Source: Weissella confusa
GTDB taxonomy: Bacteria > Bacillota > Bacilli > Lactobacillales > Lactobacillaceae
DNA length: 64,000 nucleotides
Reading direction: 5' to 3'
Assembly (NCBI RefSeq): GCF_004766315.1
Contig: NZ_PVSN01000049.1
Location: forward strand, 1 to 64,000
A model generated the notes under the pieces. That model worked only from the letters and a program-made list of their open reading frames with translations, made no database searches and had not been told where the DNA came from. Every line of letters starts with the position of its first letter. The stretch's first letter is position 1. The position numbers and the translations under genes are program-made. Shown one piece after another: positions 15,489 to 30,407 of the stretch.

Positions 15489-16892
15489 TTAGTACATATC
15501 GTCTGACAATTCTTCTGCTTTGTCTTCACGAACCAAAAAGCGCAATCCCTTTGGATAGAAATTCTTCATTTGGCCATCAACCAACTTACCGAAACCAGTT
15601 CCGTTGCCACCGATTTCAAGCAAGTACCAACCGTTCTTATACTGGTCGCGGTCACGAATCATAAACGTGTCGCCGTGAACGTATTGCGCCCACTCTTCGT
15701 CAGTCAATTCGTAACGACGCGTAAATTGGTCTGGGTGAAGAGCCAACGCCAAGGCCAAACTTGGTTCAAAGCGCTTCTTCTTCAAAGTTCCCAAGTGAAC
15801 CCCAACACGCATCACTTGAAGTCCCGTCAAATCAGGCGTTCCTTCTGGGGCTGCGTAAATTTGGTCACCAAAGGCAATCAACAATTCTGGGTCGTAATCC
15901 GGCATGAAGTCTGCACGGAATACTTGCCACAATTCGCGTTGGTCCTTGGTCAAGTTAGACTTAGCCAACTTAGGTTCCTTTGAAACGTAATCTTCATCCG
16001 TTTGATTTGAAATCAATTTGGCCATAAAGTGTCCTTCACCATCTGAGTGGTGTGGGAACAAACGCGCCGTCTTCTTCAAATCAGGGTTACCATCGGCCCA
16101 TTCTGGCTTTCCATCATCCATACCTTCGTACTTGTCGGCATCAACAATTTCCAAATCAGGACGTTCGTTAATCAACCAAGCAATGATGCGCTCATCTTCT
16201 TCTGGTGCGAACGTGCAAGTTGAGTAAACCAATTGACCACCCGGCTTCAACATCTTAACGGCTTCTTCCAAAATTTCACGTTGGCGTGCAGCGCTTTCTT
16301 CTGGGTAGTGTTCGTGCCAGTACTTGATTGCAGCTGGATCTTTACGGAACATTCCTTCACCAGAACATGGTGCATCCAACACAATTTTGTCGAAGTATTG
16401 TGGGAACTTTGGTGACAACTCTTGTGGTGAGTGGTTCGTCACAATCGCATTTTGGATACCAAAGCGCTCCACGTTTTCACTCAAAATAGCCGCACGCTTA
16501 CGGAAGATTTCATTTGAGACCAACAGTCCCTTTTGTTCCATAAATGATGCCAAGTGCGTGGTCTTTCCACCAGGTGCAGCGGCCAAATCTAGCACGCGCT
16601 CGCCTGGCTTGGGGTGAGCAAGTTCACCAACCAATTGGGCTGATGGCTCTTGTGAGTAAATGACACCCGTTGTGTGATCAACAGAGTGGCCCTTTACGGC
16701 ACCAAAGTTTCCCCACTTACCCCATGGCACCTTGCCATCGGCCTTGGTATCGTGCAGATTCATGTTGGCCTTCAAAGGGTTTTGACGGAACGCCTTCACG
16801 ACAGGCTTATCGAACGATTCAATAAAAGCATCTGCCTCATCGCCAAGTAATTGACGGTATTTTTCTTCAAATCCTTCTGGTAACTCCGCCAT
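15489..16892 (-). CDS. rsmF: RsmF-like rRNA cytosine-C5 methyltransferase
   Basis: A 467-residue NOL1/NOP2/Sun-family methyltransferase using S-adenosylmethionine to methylate cytosine in 16S rRNA. The N-terminal part (1-70) resembles the RsmF RNA-binding domain. The SAM site is VLDLAAAPGGKTTHLA (about 99-114). Two catalytic cysteines are present: DAPCSGEGMFRKD (about 173) and VYSTCTFAPEED (about 222). The C-terminal 130 residues match the RsmF PUA-like extension. It ends 51 bases before gatC and may be co-transcribed with gatCAB. The exact target base is inferred from the family. Confidence 0.88.
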   Translation of the reverse strand: MAELPEGFEEKYRQLLGDEADAFIESFDKPVVKAFRQNPLKANMNLHDTKADGKVPWGKWGNFGAVKGHSVDHTTGVIYSQEPSAQLVGELAHPKPGERVLDLAAAPGGKTTHLASFMEQKGLLVSNEIFRKRAAILSENVERFGIQNAIVTNHSPQELSPKFPQYFDKIVLDAPCSGEGMFRKDPAAIKYWHEHYPEESAARQREILEEAVKMLKPGGQLVYSTCTFAPEEDERIIAWLINERPDLEIVDADKYEGMDDGKPEWADGNPDLKKTARLFPHHSDGEGHFMAKLISNQTDEDYVSKEPKLAKSNLTKDQRELWQVFRADFMPDYDPELLIAFGDQIYAAPEGTPDLTGLQVMRVGVHLGTLKKKRFEPSLALALALHPDQFTRRYELTDEEWAQYVHGDTFMIRDRDQYKNGWYLLEIGGNGTGFGKLVDGQMKNFYPKGLRFLVREDKAEELSDDMY

Positions 16893-16951
16893 TCGGTATC
16901 TCCTTAAATCTAAGTATTCTTATTTATTTTACACGTTTTTCATGTATTTTA

Positions 16952-16988
16952 AAAACCTGACCTGTTGCGGTATAAGCAGCTGGTTTTT
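16952..16988. terminator. Candidate bidirectional hairpin
   Basis: AAAACC/GGTTTT outer arms (952-957, 982-987) and GTTGC/GCAGC inner arms, with T-runs on both strands. It separates the rsmF start from the plus-strand small-protein unit. Function is uncertain. Confidence 0.35.
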
Positions 16989-17063
16989 AACTCAGATTTA
17001 AAATATTATAAGGGTTGAAAAACAAACTACATTCCCACATACTAGTGAGTGCAGCAAGGAACG

Positions 17064-17157
17064 GTTTGGCCACCATTTCTTACTGTGACAGCGTGTTTAG
17101 GTTTGCATATTTGTCACTGTCTACCCTTAAATTTTCTGGGAACCGAGGTGGACAAAC
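17064..17157 (+). promoter_or_regulatory. Structured leader hiding a ribosome-binding site
   Basis: GTTTGGCCACC (17064-17074) pairs at 10 of 11 positions with GGTGGACAAAC (17147-17157), which contains the GAGGTGG ribosome-binding site of the peptide at 17161. The enclosed loop folds again: ACTGTGACA (17082-17090) with TGTCACTGT (17112-17120), one T-T mismatch. A weak -10-like TATTAT lies at 17004-17009, which would give a leader of about 145 bases. Pairings are read directly from the sequence; regulation is inferred. Confidence 0.55.
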
Positions 17158-17160
17158 AAA

Positions 17161-17202
17161 ATGCTTCCCAAGACTATCCTGAAATGGTTTGGCAATGGTT
17201 AA
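17161..17202 (+). CDS. 13-residue leader peptide
   Basis: ATG at 17161 follows GAGGTGG by nine bases, the only good ribosome-binding site in this region. The peptide MLPKTILKWFGNG ends at TAA 17200-17202, after the ATG (17195) of the next reading frame. This is the arrangement of a leader peptide whose translation opens or couples the downstream start. Too short for homology; the call rests on layout only. Confidence 0.42.
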   Translation: MLPKTILKWFGNG

Positions 17203-17347
17203 CTTCGATGTATTCAGTCCCTTGACTGTAGCTGTCGTCGCGATAATCGTTACGCCTCGAATCATTTACATGCTAGCTATGGCCTATGTTATGGTGAAAC
17301 GTGTGAACTTCGAGACACGAAAAAAGCGCCCACCGCGTAAGCAGTAG
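17195..17347 (+). CDS. 50-residue small membrane protein
   Basis: A predicted 50-residue peptide: a short N-terminus (MVNFDVFSP), a hydrophobic stretch at about 10-34 with one Arg, and a strongly basic tail (ETRKKRPPRKQ). It starts inside the 13-residue leader peptide, 5 bases before that peptide's stop, in a different frame and without its own Shine-Dalgarno sequence, implying translational coupling. A strong terminator follows at 17381. The size, membrane span, basic tail and hidden ribosome-binding site resemble type I toxins, but it does not match Fst, TxpA or Hok sequences that I know. It could equally be a small membrane regulator. Confidence 0.45.
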   Translation: MVNFDVFSPLTVAVVAIIVTPRIIYMLAMAYVMVKRVNFETRKKRPPRKQ

Positions 17348-17380
17348 ACGCCCCATTATCCAAACCTAGGAACCTGTCGG

Positions 17381-17412
17381 CCTAGCGAAGTGGCAGCTTC
17401 GCTAGGCTTTTT
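17381..17412 (+). terminator. Terminator of the small-protein unit
   Basis: Perfect 10-bp stem CCTAGCGAAG/CTTCGCTAGG with loop TGGCAG, then CTTTTTC. The T-run is on the plus strand only, so it belongs to a plus-strand transcript and supports an expressed unit at 17.0-17.35 kb. No gene other than the small one could use it. Confidence 0.9.
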
Positions 17413-17465
17413 CTATACCCAAAGTATAACACAGTCCCTATTCACTTGGAACTTTCAATCAATAA

Positions 17466-18296
17466 TTAAAGTGACAACTTCAACAACTTCTCAAGATAGC
17501 GAGCCAAGCCGTCTTCTTCGTTGGTGTATTCGGTCATATCGTCGGCGATTGCCTTTAGTTCAGGGTTACCGTTCTTCATCACGACACCGTGGGTTGCGTA
17601 GCCAATCATCTCAAAGTCGTTCATCTCATCCCCAAAGGCATAGATATCATCCTTCTTAATGTCGTAAGCCTTACGCAAGATGTCCAAACTAGTATCCTTT
17701 GACACACCAGCTGGTGCCACTTCAATAACTGGTGATTCACCACCCCAAGTCTTCACGTTCACGCGATCAGCACCGTAGCGCTCCGTTACAAAGTGTTGAA
17801 TTTGTGATTGATGCAAGGCATTTTCGGCGTGAATCAAGATGGCATTCACGTCCGTTTGCAAGTTCAAACGATCCAACATCTTACGGTTAGCTTCGTCTTG
17901 TGGGAAGAAAATTGCATCTTCTGTATTACGTTGTGGGCCATTACCATTTGCCCACACGTCATTTTTGCTTTCCGCAACGACAGTATCAATACCCATCATT
18001 TGTGCATTTTCAAGCAGGTCAAACGCAATTTCACGATCAATATTAAATGAGTACTCGTGTTCCCAGTGTTGACGTGGCTTGTGACCCAATGATCCGTTGA
18101 AGTTAATCATCGGTGACTTCAAGCCCAACGTGTCGTAAATATCCATCGACAAACGCACAGGACGTCCCGTGACAATTGACACAATGTGCCCGTCAGCTTG
18201 TGCAGCTTGCAACGTACGACGGGTACGGTCTGAAACCTCACCTGCATCATTCAATGTTGTCTTATCTAAATCAATTCCGATTAGTTTGCGTTCCAT
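17466..18296 (-). CDS. Cof-type HAD-superfamily phosphatase
   Basis: A 276-residue cytosolic HAD hydrolase of the Cof/YkrA subfamily (IIB cap), likely a sugar-phosphate or nucleotide phosphatase. Motif I is GIDLDKTTLN (7-16), with Lys where most members have Gly; motif II is IVTGRP (about 42), and motifs III/IV are GVSKDTSLD and AFGDEMNDFEMI (about 223). The cap domain lies between about 85 and 190. The substrate cannot be told from sequence. No terminator for it is seen between its stop and the plus-strand hairpin at 17381. Confidence 0.86.
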   Translation of the reverse strand: MERKLIGIDLDKTTLNDAGEVSDRTRRTLQAAQADGHIVSIVTGRPVRLSMDIYDTLGLKSPMINFNGSLGHKPRQHWEHEYSFNIDREIAFDLLENAQMMGIDTVVAESKNDVWANGNGPQRNTEDAIFFPQDEANRKMLDRLNLQTDVNAILIHAENALHQSQIQHFVTERYGADRVNVKTWGGESPVIEVAPAGVSKDTSLDILRKAYDIKKDDIYAFGDEMNDFEMIGYATHGVVMKNGNPELKAIADDMTEYTNEEDGLARYLEKLLKLSL

Positions 18297-18374
18297 GCGT
18301 TAGACCCCTCTTTTGACTCAATTGGTACTATGTTAGCACATTTCGGACAAAAGAGAACCGAAATTCCTGATGAC

Positions 18375-20738
18375 CTAGTCGTTCACAATTGGGACCAACA
18401 ATTGACTGTTAGTCGTATCAATCGTGTAGCGAATATCTTGGTTACCACGCACCGTCATTTCAAAATCCGTACCGTATAAAATAACGCCCAATTGGCGGCC
18501 GGCCTTCAAACGATAAAGCGTTGGATGCAACGTCAAGTTAAGCGTCACATACTCATCAGCTGCCAAATCATCAACTTGCCAAGGCGCGGTACGGTTTTGA
18601 AAGTTCATGTGACCGATGCTAATCATCTTTTCCGTCGTTGGCTTTTGCAATTTGAACTCTACCAAAGATGTTGGCTGCCACTCCGTTCCACGGTCAATTT
18701 GTTGACCAAGTGGCGTTGGCGTTGCACCCAAACGTTGTGCCTCACCATAATCAACCAACATCGCGCTCACCAAGCCAAAGTTTTCAGATGACTTGATACG
18801 CAACTTTACCGTCACTTCACCATCAATCACCATGTCATTTTCGAATGGCGCTTCCGTGAATACCAAACGGTTAACTTCAAAACGGTCATTCTCTTGCTTC
18901 AACATTTCAGCACGCCAATTGTTGAAGTCACGCTTGTAGGCCTCAAAATCAGCATCGATTTGCCAATCTTCGTAGCTCATCTCATCATCCCCAGCCAATG
19001 GGAAGGCCACCGTTTCTGTTTGCCCCCAATTTTGCCGTGTTTCCCAAGTCTCAGCTTGGTCATTCGCCTGCCAAGTCACATCCGGCAATTGCGTTTCGGC
19101 TTGATTAGCAACACCATAAAGCTTGTGTGACAACCACAAATTCATTTGATCTGAGAAATCAAGCGAACGATTGTTGTTGATGTAGATGTGTTGCCCTTGG
19201 TGCAAGTACAACTTCTTAGCAACCCCGCTTGCTTGCAACGCTTGCCACAAACGGAACACCTGGCGTGGCTTAACGTTCCAATCATTCAAGCCATGCACCA
19301 TCACCACTTCAGCTTTGATATCTGAAACATGTGGCAAATAATTACGGGCATCCCAGTAAGCATTGTAGTTGCCCGACTCACGATCCATCATCTGGTCAGT
19401 TTGGGCTTGGAAGGCTGTCCATTGGTCCTTCGTGCGGTGCCAGTCGGCTGCATCGTGCATGCGTGAATAAACTAATTCCGCCAACACATCCATGTCCTCA
19501 CCCGGGAATCCACCTGGTGCAATGACCAGACCGTTATCACGATAGTATTGGTACCAGTCTGAGATGGCAGCTTCAGAAATCACGGTTTCCAAACCAGCTA
19601 CGCCAGTTGTCGCTACTGCTGTCGCCAAGGTTCCCAAATACGACTTTCCGGTCATCGCAACCTTGCCATTTGACCAATTTGACTTGATAGCATAACCCGA
19701 AGTGCGGTCTGTGAAAGCAACACGATTACCTGCCAACCATTCGACGACTGCCTTCATCGAAAGGACTTGTTCTGGCGAACCGGTGTCTTGCATGCCATCT
19801 GAATGACGCGTACCCACACCTGAAGAGTATGCAACCGCGAAACCACGTGCCAAGAAGTAATTGTTGATGTCGACATGACTCGTTGCCTTGAAACTTTCTG
19901 TTGTTTCATCAACTTCAGCGATAACCTCATGTTGTGTCGAATCCGGTATCGTCACCCCTGAGAATGCAATATCTTCATAGCGCACATTGTTAGGTGTCTT
20001 GTGACTTAGCGGCACATCAACCGTGTGCAATTTAGCATCATTCGCCTCGTTGTTCAATCCTTGATAGTAAGGTGACGCCGTAAACAAGACTGGTACATCA
20101 ACCGACGTATCAGGTCGCAAAATTTCAACGCGAACCAAATCTCGAACACCATCTTCATCCGTATCCACATCCGTTTCGACATACACAACTTCTTTAATTA
20201 GCGCACTGGTATCAAAAGTCGCCATTGCTTTCCCGTTGAAAAACAGTGGCAAATTCGTCTTAGCAAAGTAACCACGGCTGGCCAAATCATCGATAAATTG
20301 CAATCCGCCGGCTGTGTGCGTTGTCAGCAAAGCATACCAAGCCGTAAGAACATCATCTACGTCCCACTTGCCACGCTTTTCGTATAGTGGTAGGCCAATT
20401 TCATGAACTGCTTCTACTGGTTGATCAATTTGGTAATCAACAGCTTCCGTAAAACCAAGTAATTGCAGTGCAACGGCGTCAAAAATCTCAGTTGTTAGTG
20501 GCGCCCCACTCTGCAAAAATGTCGCAACATCCCGATTGTTATCAACCGCTAACTCACGTAATTTTGATGTTGCGTCCCGGTACTCTGGAAAGGCTTGAAG
20601 CAACAATGCTTGCCAAACGGCTGCTGCACCAGCACCCATTGCATCAGCCACGGTCTCATCGTAAAAACCGATTTCTGTCAGTTCATGCACCTGCTGTTCG
20701 AACGGGGTCTCCACCACCGCATATTGATTTATCTTCAT
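18375..20738 (-). CDS. pepX: Xaa-Pro dipeptidyl-peptidase
   Basis: A 787-residue S15-family serine peptidase that cuts X-Pro dipeptides from peptide N-termini, a standard lactic-acid-bacterial casein-utilisation enzyme. The N-terminal helical domain (1-150) begins MKINQYAVVETPFEQQ. The catalytic Ser is in GKSYLG (about 355) and the His in LHQGQHIYINNNRS (about 503). A C-terminal jelly-roll domain follows. The start is put at 20738: the extended -10 TGGTATAAT at 20767-20775 means the longer frame upstream is not transcribed. Only a GGGGG motif serves as ribosome-binding site. Confidence 0.95.
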   Translation of the reverse strand: MKINQYAVVETPFEQQVHELTEIGFYDETVADAMGAGAAAVWQALLLQAFPEYRDATSKLRELAVDNNRDVATFLQSGAPLTTEIFDAVALQLLGFTEAVDYQIDQPVEAVHEIGLPLYEKRGKWDVDDVLTAWYALLTTHTAGGLQFIDDLASRGYFAKTNLPLFFNGKAMATFDTSALIKEVVYVETDVDTDEDGVRDLVRVEILRPDTSVDVPVLFTASPYYQGLNNEANDAKLHTVDVPLSHKTPNNVRYEDIAFSGVTIPDSTQHEVIAEVDETTESFKATSHVDINNYFLARGFAVAYSSGVGTRHSDGMQDTGSPEQVLSMKAVVEWLAGNRVAFTDRTSGYAIKSNWSNGKVAMTGKSYLGTLATAVATTGVAGLETVISEAAISDWYQYYRDNGLVIAPGGFPGEDMDVLAELVYSRMHDAADWHRTKDQWTAFQAQTDQMMDRESGNYNAYWDARNYLPHVSDIKAEVVMVHGLNDWNVKPRQVFRLWQALQASGVAKKLYLHQGQHIYINNNRSLDFSDQMNLWLSHKLYGVANQAETQLPDVTWQANDQAETWETRQNWGQTETVAFPLAGDDEMSYEDWQIDADFEAYKRDFNNWRAEMLKQENDRFEVNRLVFTEAPFENDMVIDGEVTVKLRIKSSENFGLVSAMLVDYGEAQRLGATPTPLGQQIDRGTEWQPTSLVEFKLQKPTTEKMISIGHMNFQNRTAPWQVDDLAADEYVTLNLTLHPTLYRLKAGRQLGVILYGTDFEMTVRGNQDIRYTIDTTNSQLLVPIVND

Positions 20739-30283: not shown

Positions 30284-30308
30284 CCCCCTATACTTGTGTT
30301 AACGAATC

Positions 30309-30394
30309 AAACAAGCTGGGGTGCCGTTACGGCTGAGATAATACCCATGGAACCTAAGCAGGGTAATGCCTGCCGGGGAGCTTGGTTTGTTTAC
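30309..30394 (+). ncRNA. TPP (THI-box) riboswitch
   Basis: All conserved blocks are present: GGGGTGCC (30318-30325), GGCTGAGATAATACCC (30331-30345), GAACCTAA, and GGGTAATGCCTGCCGGGGAG (30361-30380). Outer strands AAACAAGCT and AGCTTGGTTTG form P1. Thiamine pyrophosphate binding should favour the terminator just downstream. It controls ykoEDC. Confidence 0.95.
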
Positions 30395-30407
30395 GATTGA
30401 AGTAAAC

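What the first reader, a model, noticed from the sequence alone, without database searches (positions are those of the whole stretch)
17004..17412. Hidden small-protein unit with ribosome-binding-site sequestration, leader peptide and coupled membrane peptide
A strand-specific perfect terminator (17381-17412) marks a plus-strand transcript where no normal gene exists. Upstream, GTTTGGCCACC pairs 10/11 with GGTGGACAAAC, burying the only good ribosome-binding site. That site serves a 13-codon peptide whose stop overlaps the start of a 50-residue membrane peptide with a basic tail. Nested folding, leader-coupled translation and a small hydrophobic product are the design of Hok/Mok and other type I toxins. 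No known toxin family matches by eye, so this could be a new toxin-antitoxin or a regulated small membrane protein.
Basis: partly seen in the sequence, partly recalled or inferred. Interest (0 to 1): 0.72.

Follow-up and report, generated by a model that had tools for sequence, protein, structure and literature searches.

The report
Hidden membrane peptide with antisense RNA
A gap between two ordinary genes of a Weissella bacterium hides a tiny membrane peptide and a facing antisense RNA that looks built to silence it, a likely toxin-antidote pair with unannotated relatives in lactobacilli.

Summary
The 50-residue membrane peptide (17195-17347), its overlapping 13-codon leader (17161-17202) and the plus-strand terminator (17379-17413) are real. 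Its terminator overlaps the end of the peptide gene. Its linker matches a 10-nt direct repeat just upstream of the leader's ribosome-binding site (RBS).

A second copy lies elsewhere in the genome. Profile searches found relatives in Weissella and other Lactobacillaceae. The paired-terminator layout occurs in 17 of 22 first loci, 17 of 17 later profile hits and 6 of 6 fetched plasmid copies, against 0 of 101 control frame ends. The antisense linker's best site abuts an RBS motif in 21 of 29 loci, against 62 of 812 with swapped linkers. A same-species genome has an empty site; three deletion alleles lost the peptide's start but kept the antisense gene.

Best reading: a type I toxin-antitoxin family that matched no Pfam, NCBIfam or Rfam model. 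It works like par/Fst and Lpt/RNAII, with a mok/hok-like leader in Weissella; membership in the Fst family was tested and not met. Transcription and toxicity are untested.

The parts
16969..17455 (.). the whole module (ends approximate, by eye)
   Evidence: absent from the same place in G060, labelled same species, where about 46 bp stand instead
17015..17043 (+). possible promoter of the peptide mRNA, TTGAAA-17-CATACT
   Evidence: weak: 4 promoter-like sites found in 16000-18500 against 4.1 expected; counterparts with the same spacing seen by eye in L007 and L046
17087..17101 (+). 5' arm of a 5'-3' fold-back helix with 17365-17378
   Evidence: all cells paired in 4 of 4 Weissella copies, but no pair changed on both sides; across loci Fisher 7.7e-7 in 11 first loci, 0.024 in 20 later ones
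17118..17125 (+). nearer partner that pairs with the RBS (17147-17154)
   Evidence: 8/8, 8/8, 7/8 and 6/8 in four copies
   Evidence: 10/11, 10/11, 9/11 and 8/11 in four copies; 186 of 2000 shuffles reach 10
17135..17144 (+). direct repeat 1, TCTGGGAACC, just upstream of the RBS
   Evidence: best antisense-linker site of this locus (p 0.11 alone); same position in 21 of 29 loci
17145..17151 (+). RBS of the leader, GAGGTGG
   Evidence: sequence; GAGGKGG-like in four copies
17161..17202 (+). leader frame MLPKTILKWFGNG, stop overlapping the peptide start
   Evidence: M[LF]PKTI and the overlap kept in 4 of 4 intact Weissella copies
17195..17347 (+). 50-residue membrane peptide with basic tail, putative toxin
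   Evidence: profile relatives; dN/dS 0.10 against the W. confusa copy; single helix in a one-sequence model
17365..17374 (+). direct repeat 2, CCTAGGAACC
   Evidence: unchanged in the 4 Weissella copies of alignment A5; its complement is the antisense linker
17379..17413 (+). terminator of the peptide mRNA
17316..17417 (-). predicted antisense RNA (antitoxin), about 100 nt
   Evidence: promoter-like site and terminator; alignment of 9
17317..17354 (-). terminator of the antisense RNA, overlapping the last codons and stop of the peptide
   Evidence: 12/12 paired on the minus strand in 4 of 4 copies; 6 of 13 pairs changed on both sides somewhere in 9 sequences
17423..17431 (-). extended -10 of the antisense promoter, TGTTATACT
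   Evidence: listing of 20 loci; 5 of 6 or better -10 within 40 nt in 10 of 13 first loci (shuffles mean 6.2, max 10) and 16 of 17 later loci (mean 9.6, max 15); no good -35 seen by eye

Best explanation
A type I toxin-antitoxin module. A ~360-nt mRNA from the plus strand ends near 17413. It encodes a short leader peptide whose translation carries ribosomes onto the start of a 50-residue membrane peptide, the putative toxin. The mRNA folds so that the leader's RBS is paired and its 5' and 3' parts are joined, which delays translation. A ~100-nt antisense RNA is transcribed from the facing minus-strand promoter. It is complementary to the mRNA's 3' end (terminator hairpin, linker, last codons) and, through its linker, to the direct repeat just upstream of the leader's RBS. 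Binding there would block ribosome loading, and the duplex would be open to RNase III. If the antisense RNA runs out, the peptide is made and damages the cell's own membrane. Shown by sequence and comparison: the parts, their recurrence, the complementarities, gain and loss between genomes. Inferred: both transcripts, translational coupling, toxicity and neutralisation.
For: Layout of two terminators in 17 of 22 first loci (by the rule), 17 of 17 later profile hits and 6 of 6 fetched plasmid copies, against 0 of 101 control frame ends. Antisense linker's best site abuts an RBS motif in 21 of 29 loci against 62 of 812 swapped; 0 of 2000 permutations reach it. Antisense terminator kept with paired changes. 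Leader and overlap kept in 4 of 4 intact Weissella copies. Paralogue in the same genome, empty site in a same-species genome, three deletion alleles that lost the peptide start but kept the antisense gene. Hydrophobic stretch with +7 tail.
Against: No transcript, peptide or toxicity data. The window's own repeat match is p 0.11 alone. The plus promoter is no better than chance. Low dN/dS is also seen in the remains of dead copies. 5 of 22 first loci miss the layout rule. Fold-back is weak in the later set (0.024). Tail codons supply the antisense T-run, so layout and protein are partly linked. No similarity to any named toxin family.
Confidence: 0.8

Rival explanations
1. A small regulated membrane protein that is not a toxin (for example a stress peptide or modulator of a membrane complex), controlled by the same antisense RNA.
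For: Everything about the RNA layout fits this equally; toxicity is untested.
Against: Presence and absence at one site, several copies in some genomes, plasmid copies and decay that spares the antisense gene in three deletion alleles suit a toxin better.
Confidence: 0.14
2. A regulatory RNA locus in which the frame is not translated.
For: Strong fold; conserved RNA elements.
Against: The frame is recognisable by protein profile in other genera; leader and peptide starts sit behind RBS-like motifs; intact pairs have more synonymous changes (8 against 3, 4 against 3).
Confidence: 0.04
3. A short selfish repeat whose features are by-products.
For: Presence and absence of a ~490-bp unit; several copies in some genomes.
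Against: By eye no target duplication or end repeat was seen; no repeat search was run for this. The RNA features keep their order around an otherwise diverged frame.
Confidence: 0.02

Closest known systems
par of pAD1 (Fst/RNA II) and its Lactobacillaceae relative Lpt/RNAII
   Same: Small membrane peptide with charged tail; convergent RNAs; direct repeats placing complementarity at the toxin's translation start; RBS held in a stem (PMC7472228 passages; PMC5608710 section 5).
   Different: Peptide shows no Fst_toxin match at these loci and no [PDST]xxxG motif in 3 of 3 peptides tested. par shares one bidirectional terminator; here two separate hairpins, the antisense one over the toxin's stop. 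The second repeat lies before the mRNA terminator, so the mRNA carries both copies.
hok/mok/Sok and ldrX/ldrD (leader-coupled type I systems)
   Same: A leader frame overlaps the toxin start and its translation is coupled; in hok the antisense RNA acts at the leader and the mRNA ends fold back (PMC8167048 passages; PMC8309996 passages).
   Different: There the antisense RNA gene faces the leader region (recalled); here it faces the 3' end. Unrelated peptide by Pfam. The leader was seen in the Weissella branch only; coupling is inferred here.
bsrG/SR4, txpA/RatA, yonT/SR6 of Bacillus
   Same: Antisense RNA overlaps the toxin mRNA at its 3' end (PMC6562991 passages).
   Different: Peptide family differs as far as Pfam shows; here a second, locus-specific match lies next to the RBS.

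Membership tests
Type I toxin-antitoxin (general) | small, usually hydrophobic peptide gene | tested here: met
   50 aa, maximal 19-residue hydropathy 2.18, net charge +7
Type I toxin-antitoxin (general) | antisense RNA gene complementary to the mRNA | tested here: inconclusive
   promoter-like site and terminator present and recurrent; transcript not seen
Type I toxin-antitoxin (general) | peptide toxic, antisense RNA neutralises it | not testable with these tools
   needs expression
Fst/Ldr (par) | Fst_toxin sequence family | tested here: not met
   no Pfam match for the window peptide; PF13955 scan: no hit in the own genome, 1 of 28 genus genomes below cut-off, 1 of 4 others below cut-off at another place. 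The scan found 1 of 14 control genomes and none over cut-off, so its reach is limited
Fst/Ldr (par) | P/D/S/TxxxG motif (said of the majority of members) | tested here: not met
   none in 3 of 3 peptides tested; motif from PMC7472228 passages
Fst/Ldr (par) | shared bidirectional terminator | tested here: not met
   two separate hairpins in the window
Fst/Ldr (par) | direct repeats giving complementarity at the translation start | tested here: met
   21 of 29 loci against 62 of 812 swapped; but the second repeat lies before the mRNA terminator
Hok/Sok | leader frame overlapping the toxin start | tested here: met
   4 of 4 intact Weissella copies; coupling itself not tested
Hok/Sok | antisense RNA encoded opposite the leader region (feature recalled) | tested here: not met
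   antisense gene faces the 3' end
Hok/Sok | Hok sequence family | tested here: not met
   no Pfam match at E up to 10
BsrG/TxpA group | 3'-overlapping antisense RNA | tested here: met
   predicted overlap of about 100 nt
BsrG/TxpA group | sequence family | tested here: inconclusive
   no Pfam or NCBIfam match; whether those libraries hold a model for each member was not checked

The most novel reading that the evidence does not exclude
An undescribed family of type I toxin-antitoxins runs through Lactobacillaceae (Weissella, Ligilactobacillus, Lactobacillus, Limosilactobacillus), missed because the peptide goes unannotated. The last codons of the toxin double as the antitoxin's terminator. 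Which antitoxin fits which toxin is written in a locus-specific repeat next to the RBS. The Weissella branch adds a coupled leader. Deleted copies that keep only the antitoxin gene may act as antidotes in trans to intact copies.
Probability: 0.6. Interest if true: 0.72.

Novelty: new variant of a known kind. Interest (0 to 1): 0.62.

Why it matters
Type I systems are hard to find because peptide and RNA are tiny. This one was found from a single intergenic gap and its layout then held in 23 of 23 further loci that were looked at (some near-identical). If real, it adds a family in food and gut lactobacilli, with copies on plasmids of L. salivarius, L. amylovorus and L. fermentum, of use for plasmid stability and strain engineering. 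The locus-specific repeats give a ready test of how paralogous antitoxins avoid, or use, cross-talk.

Tried and rejected
Rfam: one TPP riboswitch in the window at gathering thresholds. In the stretch only sub-threshold matches, all on the minus strand (best trpB motif, 27.8 bits against 59 needed): rejected as chance.

PDB by profile: one match at E 0.63, an unrelated protein. Phages none, viral contigs none. Plasmids: none with the two Weissella peptides or one G376 peptide or with DNA of L107; L. murinus and 11 records with others.

A bidirectional terminator as in par: rejected, two separate hairpins. A gapped duplex-energy test of antisense against 5' UTR was indecisive (3 to 297 of 300 shuffles at least as good over 14 loci); the ungapped helix test and the swapped-linker control were run after it. 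Set aside as chance: G340, G152, G281 and G009:C42 (by eye, long or broken frames), G014 (stops inside) and G617 (stop inside). G020 is a remnant beside a transposase-like frame and was not counted. The structure model is of one sequence and starts at residue 2, so it shows only that a helix is plausible; no fold search was run on it. Deletion and frameshift alleles were described and not mended.

Full report
WHAT IS THERE. The stretch 16893-17465 lies between an RsmF-type rRNA methyltransferase (15489-16892) and a HAD hydrolase (17466-18296), both on the minus strand. On the plus strand a 13-codon leader (17161-17202) with the RBS GAGGTGG overlaps by eight bases (ATGGTTAA) a 50-codon frame (17195-17347), followed by a strong plus-strand terminator at 17379-17413. 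The peptide is MVNFDVFSPLTVAVVAIIVTPRIIYMLAMAYVMVKRVNFETRKKRPPRKQ: a hydrophobic stretch, then a +7 tail; a one-sequence model is a single helix. The stretch folds better than all 100 shuffles.

THE SECOND HALF. On the minus strand a terminator hairpin (17354 to 17323, then a T-run) overlaps the last codons and stop of the peptide gene. An extended -10 (TGTTATACT) lies just right of the plus-strand terminator. Together they predict a ~100-nt antisense RNA: the complement of the mRNA terminator, a linker, and its own terminator. The linker holds the complement of CCTAGGAACC (17365-17374), a near copy of TCTGGGAACC (17135-17144) just upstream of the leader's RBS. So the antisense RNA can pair with the mRNA's 3' end and with the leader's start region. 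Promoters are the softest part. The plus one is no better than chance. For the minus one, a -10 of 5 of 6 or better stands within 40 nt in 10 of 13 first loci (shuffles mean 6.2, max 10) and 16 of 17 later loci (mean 9.6, max 15).

RELATIVES. A copy with 48% protein identity and the same parts lies elsewhere in the same genome, between genes that look like thiD and hup (gene names by eye from the translations). With each of two single peptides, 8 of 28 Weissella genomes match at E 0.01 (one of the eight holds stops and was set aside). With profiles, 12 of 397 family genomes match at 0.01 (at least three judged chance) and 12 of 397 at 0.001; 5 of 395 order genomes, the only one outside the family judged chance; 7 of 26 and 8 of 50 genomes of two other genera. 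The first of these genera is very probably Ligilactobacillus: its peptide is 97.7% identical to an unannotated stretch of an L. murinus plasmid. Eleven plasmid records of Ligilactobacillus, Lactobacillus and Limosilactobacillus carry further matches, none annotated under the match. These tblastn hits are weak (E 0.01 to 1); the plasmid gene table is known to be incomplete.

LAYOUT TEST. Rule: a minus-strand terminator that starts 45 to 0 nt before the end of the stop codon and ends between 10 nt before and 30 nt after it, and a plus-strand terminator that begins 10-85 nt after. Control: of 101 ends of open frames of at least 120 codons, 0 have both, 0 the minus one, 16 the plus one (some ends are counted twice because loci overlap). 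First-found loci: 17 of 22, three deletion alleles included; misses are the three copies in G009, which lie at contig edges, G016 and G107. Loci found afterwards by protein profile: 17 of 17, of which three share one tail and two another. Plasmid copies: 6 of 6 fetched, out of 11 records, three of them close relatives. Caution: lysine codons of the tail supply the T-run, so layout and protein are partly linked; the far arm of that hairpin and the plus terminator are not.

REPEAT TEST. For each locus the best ungapped helix between antisense linker and the mRNA's 5' region was scored against shuffles. Fisher p is 8.7e-4 for 11 first loci and 2.2e-9 for 20 later loci after three near-identical ones were dropped (close relatives remain, so this is overstated). 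In 29 loci (11 and 18; two more close relatives dropped) the best site abuts an RBS-like motif in 21, against 62 of 812 with linkers swapped between loci; swapped scores reach the own score in 165 of 812; none of 2000 permutations reached the own total or count. The misses are G376b, G376c, G137a, L100, L103, L113, L116 and L123. The window's own match is p 0.11 alone, so the case rests on the family. An earlier gapped test was indecisive.

RNA STRUCTURE. The antisense terminator is paired 12 of 12 on the minus strand in 4 of 4 Weissella copies; in 9 sequences 6 of its 13 pairs show changes on both sides. A 5'-3' helix (17087-17101 with 17365-17378) is kept in 4 of 4 but with no change on both sides; across loci it is strong in the first set (7.7e-7) and weak in the later set (0.024). 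A nearer partner is 8, 8, 7 and 6 of 8. With two clades these counts exceed neither shuffle control (85 and 74 of 500) and cannot decide between them.

GAIN, LOSS, DECAY. G060, labelled same species, has 98% and 95% identical flanks but no module at this place. In G023 at this locus, and in G013 and G060 at the second locus, the 5' part of the module is missing while the antisense gene with promoter-like site and both terminators stays. In G021 the peptide frame is broken. This is the decay expected if losing the antidote first were harmful. dN/dS is 0.10 (8 synonymous, 3 non-synonymous changes) and 0.23 (4, 3) for intact pairs, but remains in two dead copies give similar values (5, 0 and 10, 5), so this is not proof.

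WHAT IT WORKS LIKE AND WHAT IT IS. It works like par/Fst and Lpt/RNAII: convergent RNAs, repeats at the translation start, RBS held in a stem (PMC7472228 passages; PMC5608710 passages and section 5). It differs in peptide family, in two separate terminators and in the place of the second repeat. The coupled leader recalls mok/hok and ldrX/ldrD (PMC8167048 passages). The 3' overlap recalls bsrG/SR4 (PMC6562991 passages). Membership in the Fst family was tested and not met.

LITERATURE. Full-text searches: type I toxin-antitoxin with Weissella (6 papers; listing, and in PMC11638225 passages with 'type I', all in its reference list), with Ligilactobacillus (0), with Leuconostoc (7, listing; in PMC8003834 passages and one section, which deal with Lpt relatives), Lactobacillus with Fst (14, listing), convergent small hydrophobic systems (14, listing), new families (36, ten listed), T1TAdb (6, listing), and two peptide strings (0 and 0). 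In what was seen there is no description of this family. The library holds open-licence papers only and one key survey was not held, so an earlier report cannot be excluded.

VERDICT. A conserved type I toxin-antitoxin-like module that comes and goes between genomes, new as a family as far as these libraries show. Toxicity and both transcripts remain to be shown.

Noticed in passing
window 30307-30396 (+): TPP riboswitch aptamer, 63.1 bits.
   Followed up: no
L018 (G003:C14:85500-89000): By eye, pieces of the rsmF-HAD region stand in a scrambled order, probably an assembly fault; the piece with this site looks like the empty version seen in G060.
   Followed up: partly
L043, L044, L045 (G009): Three copies each lie at a contig end that cuts the frame, as expected if near-identical repeats broke the assembly; their antisense hairpin misses the layout rule.
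   Followed up: partly
L077 (G107, minus strand): A relative with a longer charged N-terminal part and one terminator right after the stop; it misses the layout rule.
   Followed up: no
L042 1541-1810 (G016, W. viridescens): The frame has no usual start codon close to the conserved part, and plus and minus terminators fall on the same hairpin.
   Followed up: no
L089 (L. murinus plasmid NZ_CP040853.1): Six tblastn places of the family on one plasmid; two seen within 12 kb, near HicAB, a RelE/ParE toxin and an ArpU-type phage gene.
   Followed up: partly
window locus and L007: The two copies in this genome share almost the same repeat (CTGGGAACC/CTAGGAACC), so their antisense RNAs might act on each other's mRNA.
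   Followed up: no
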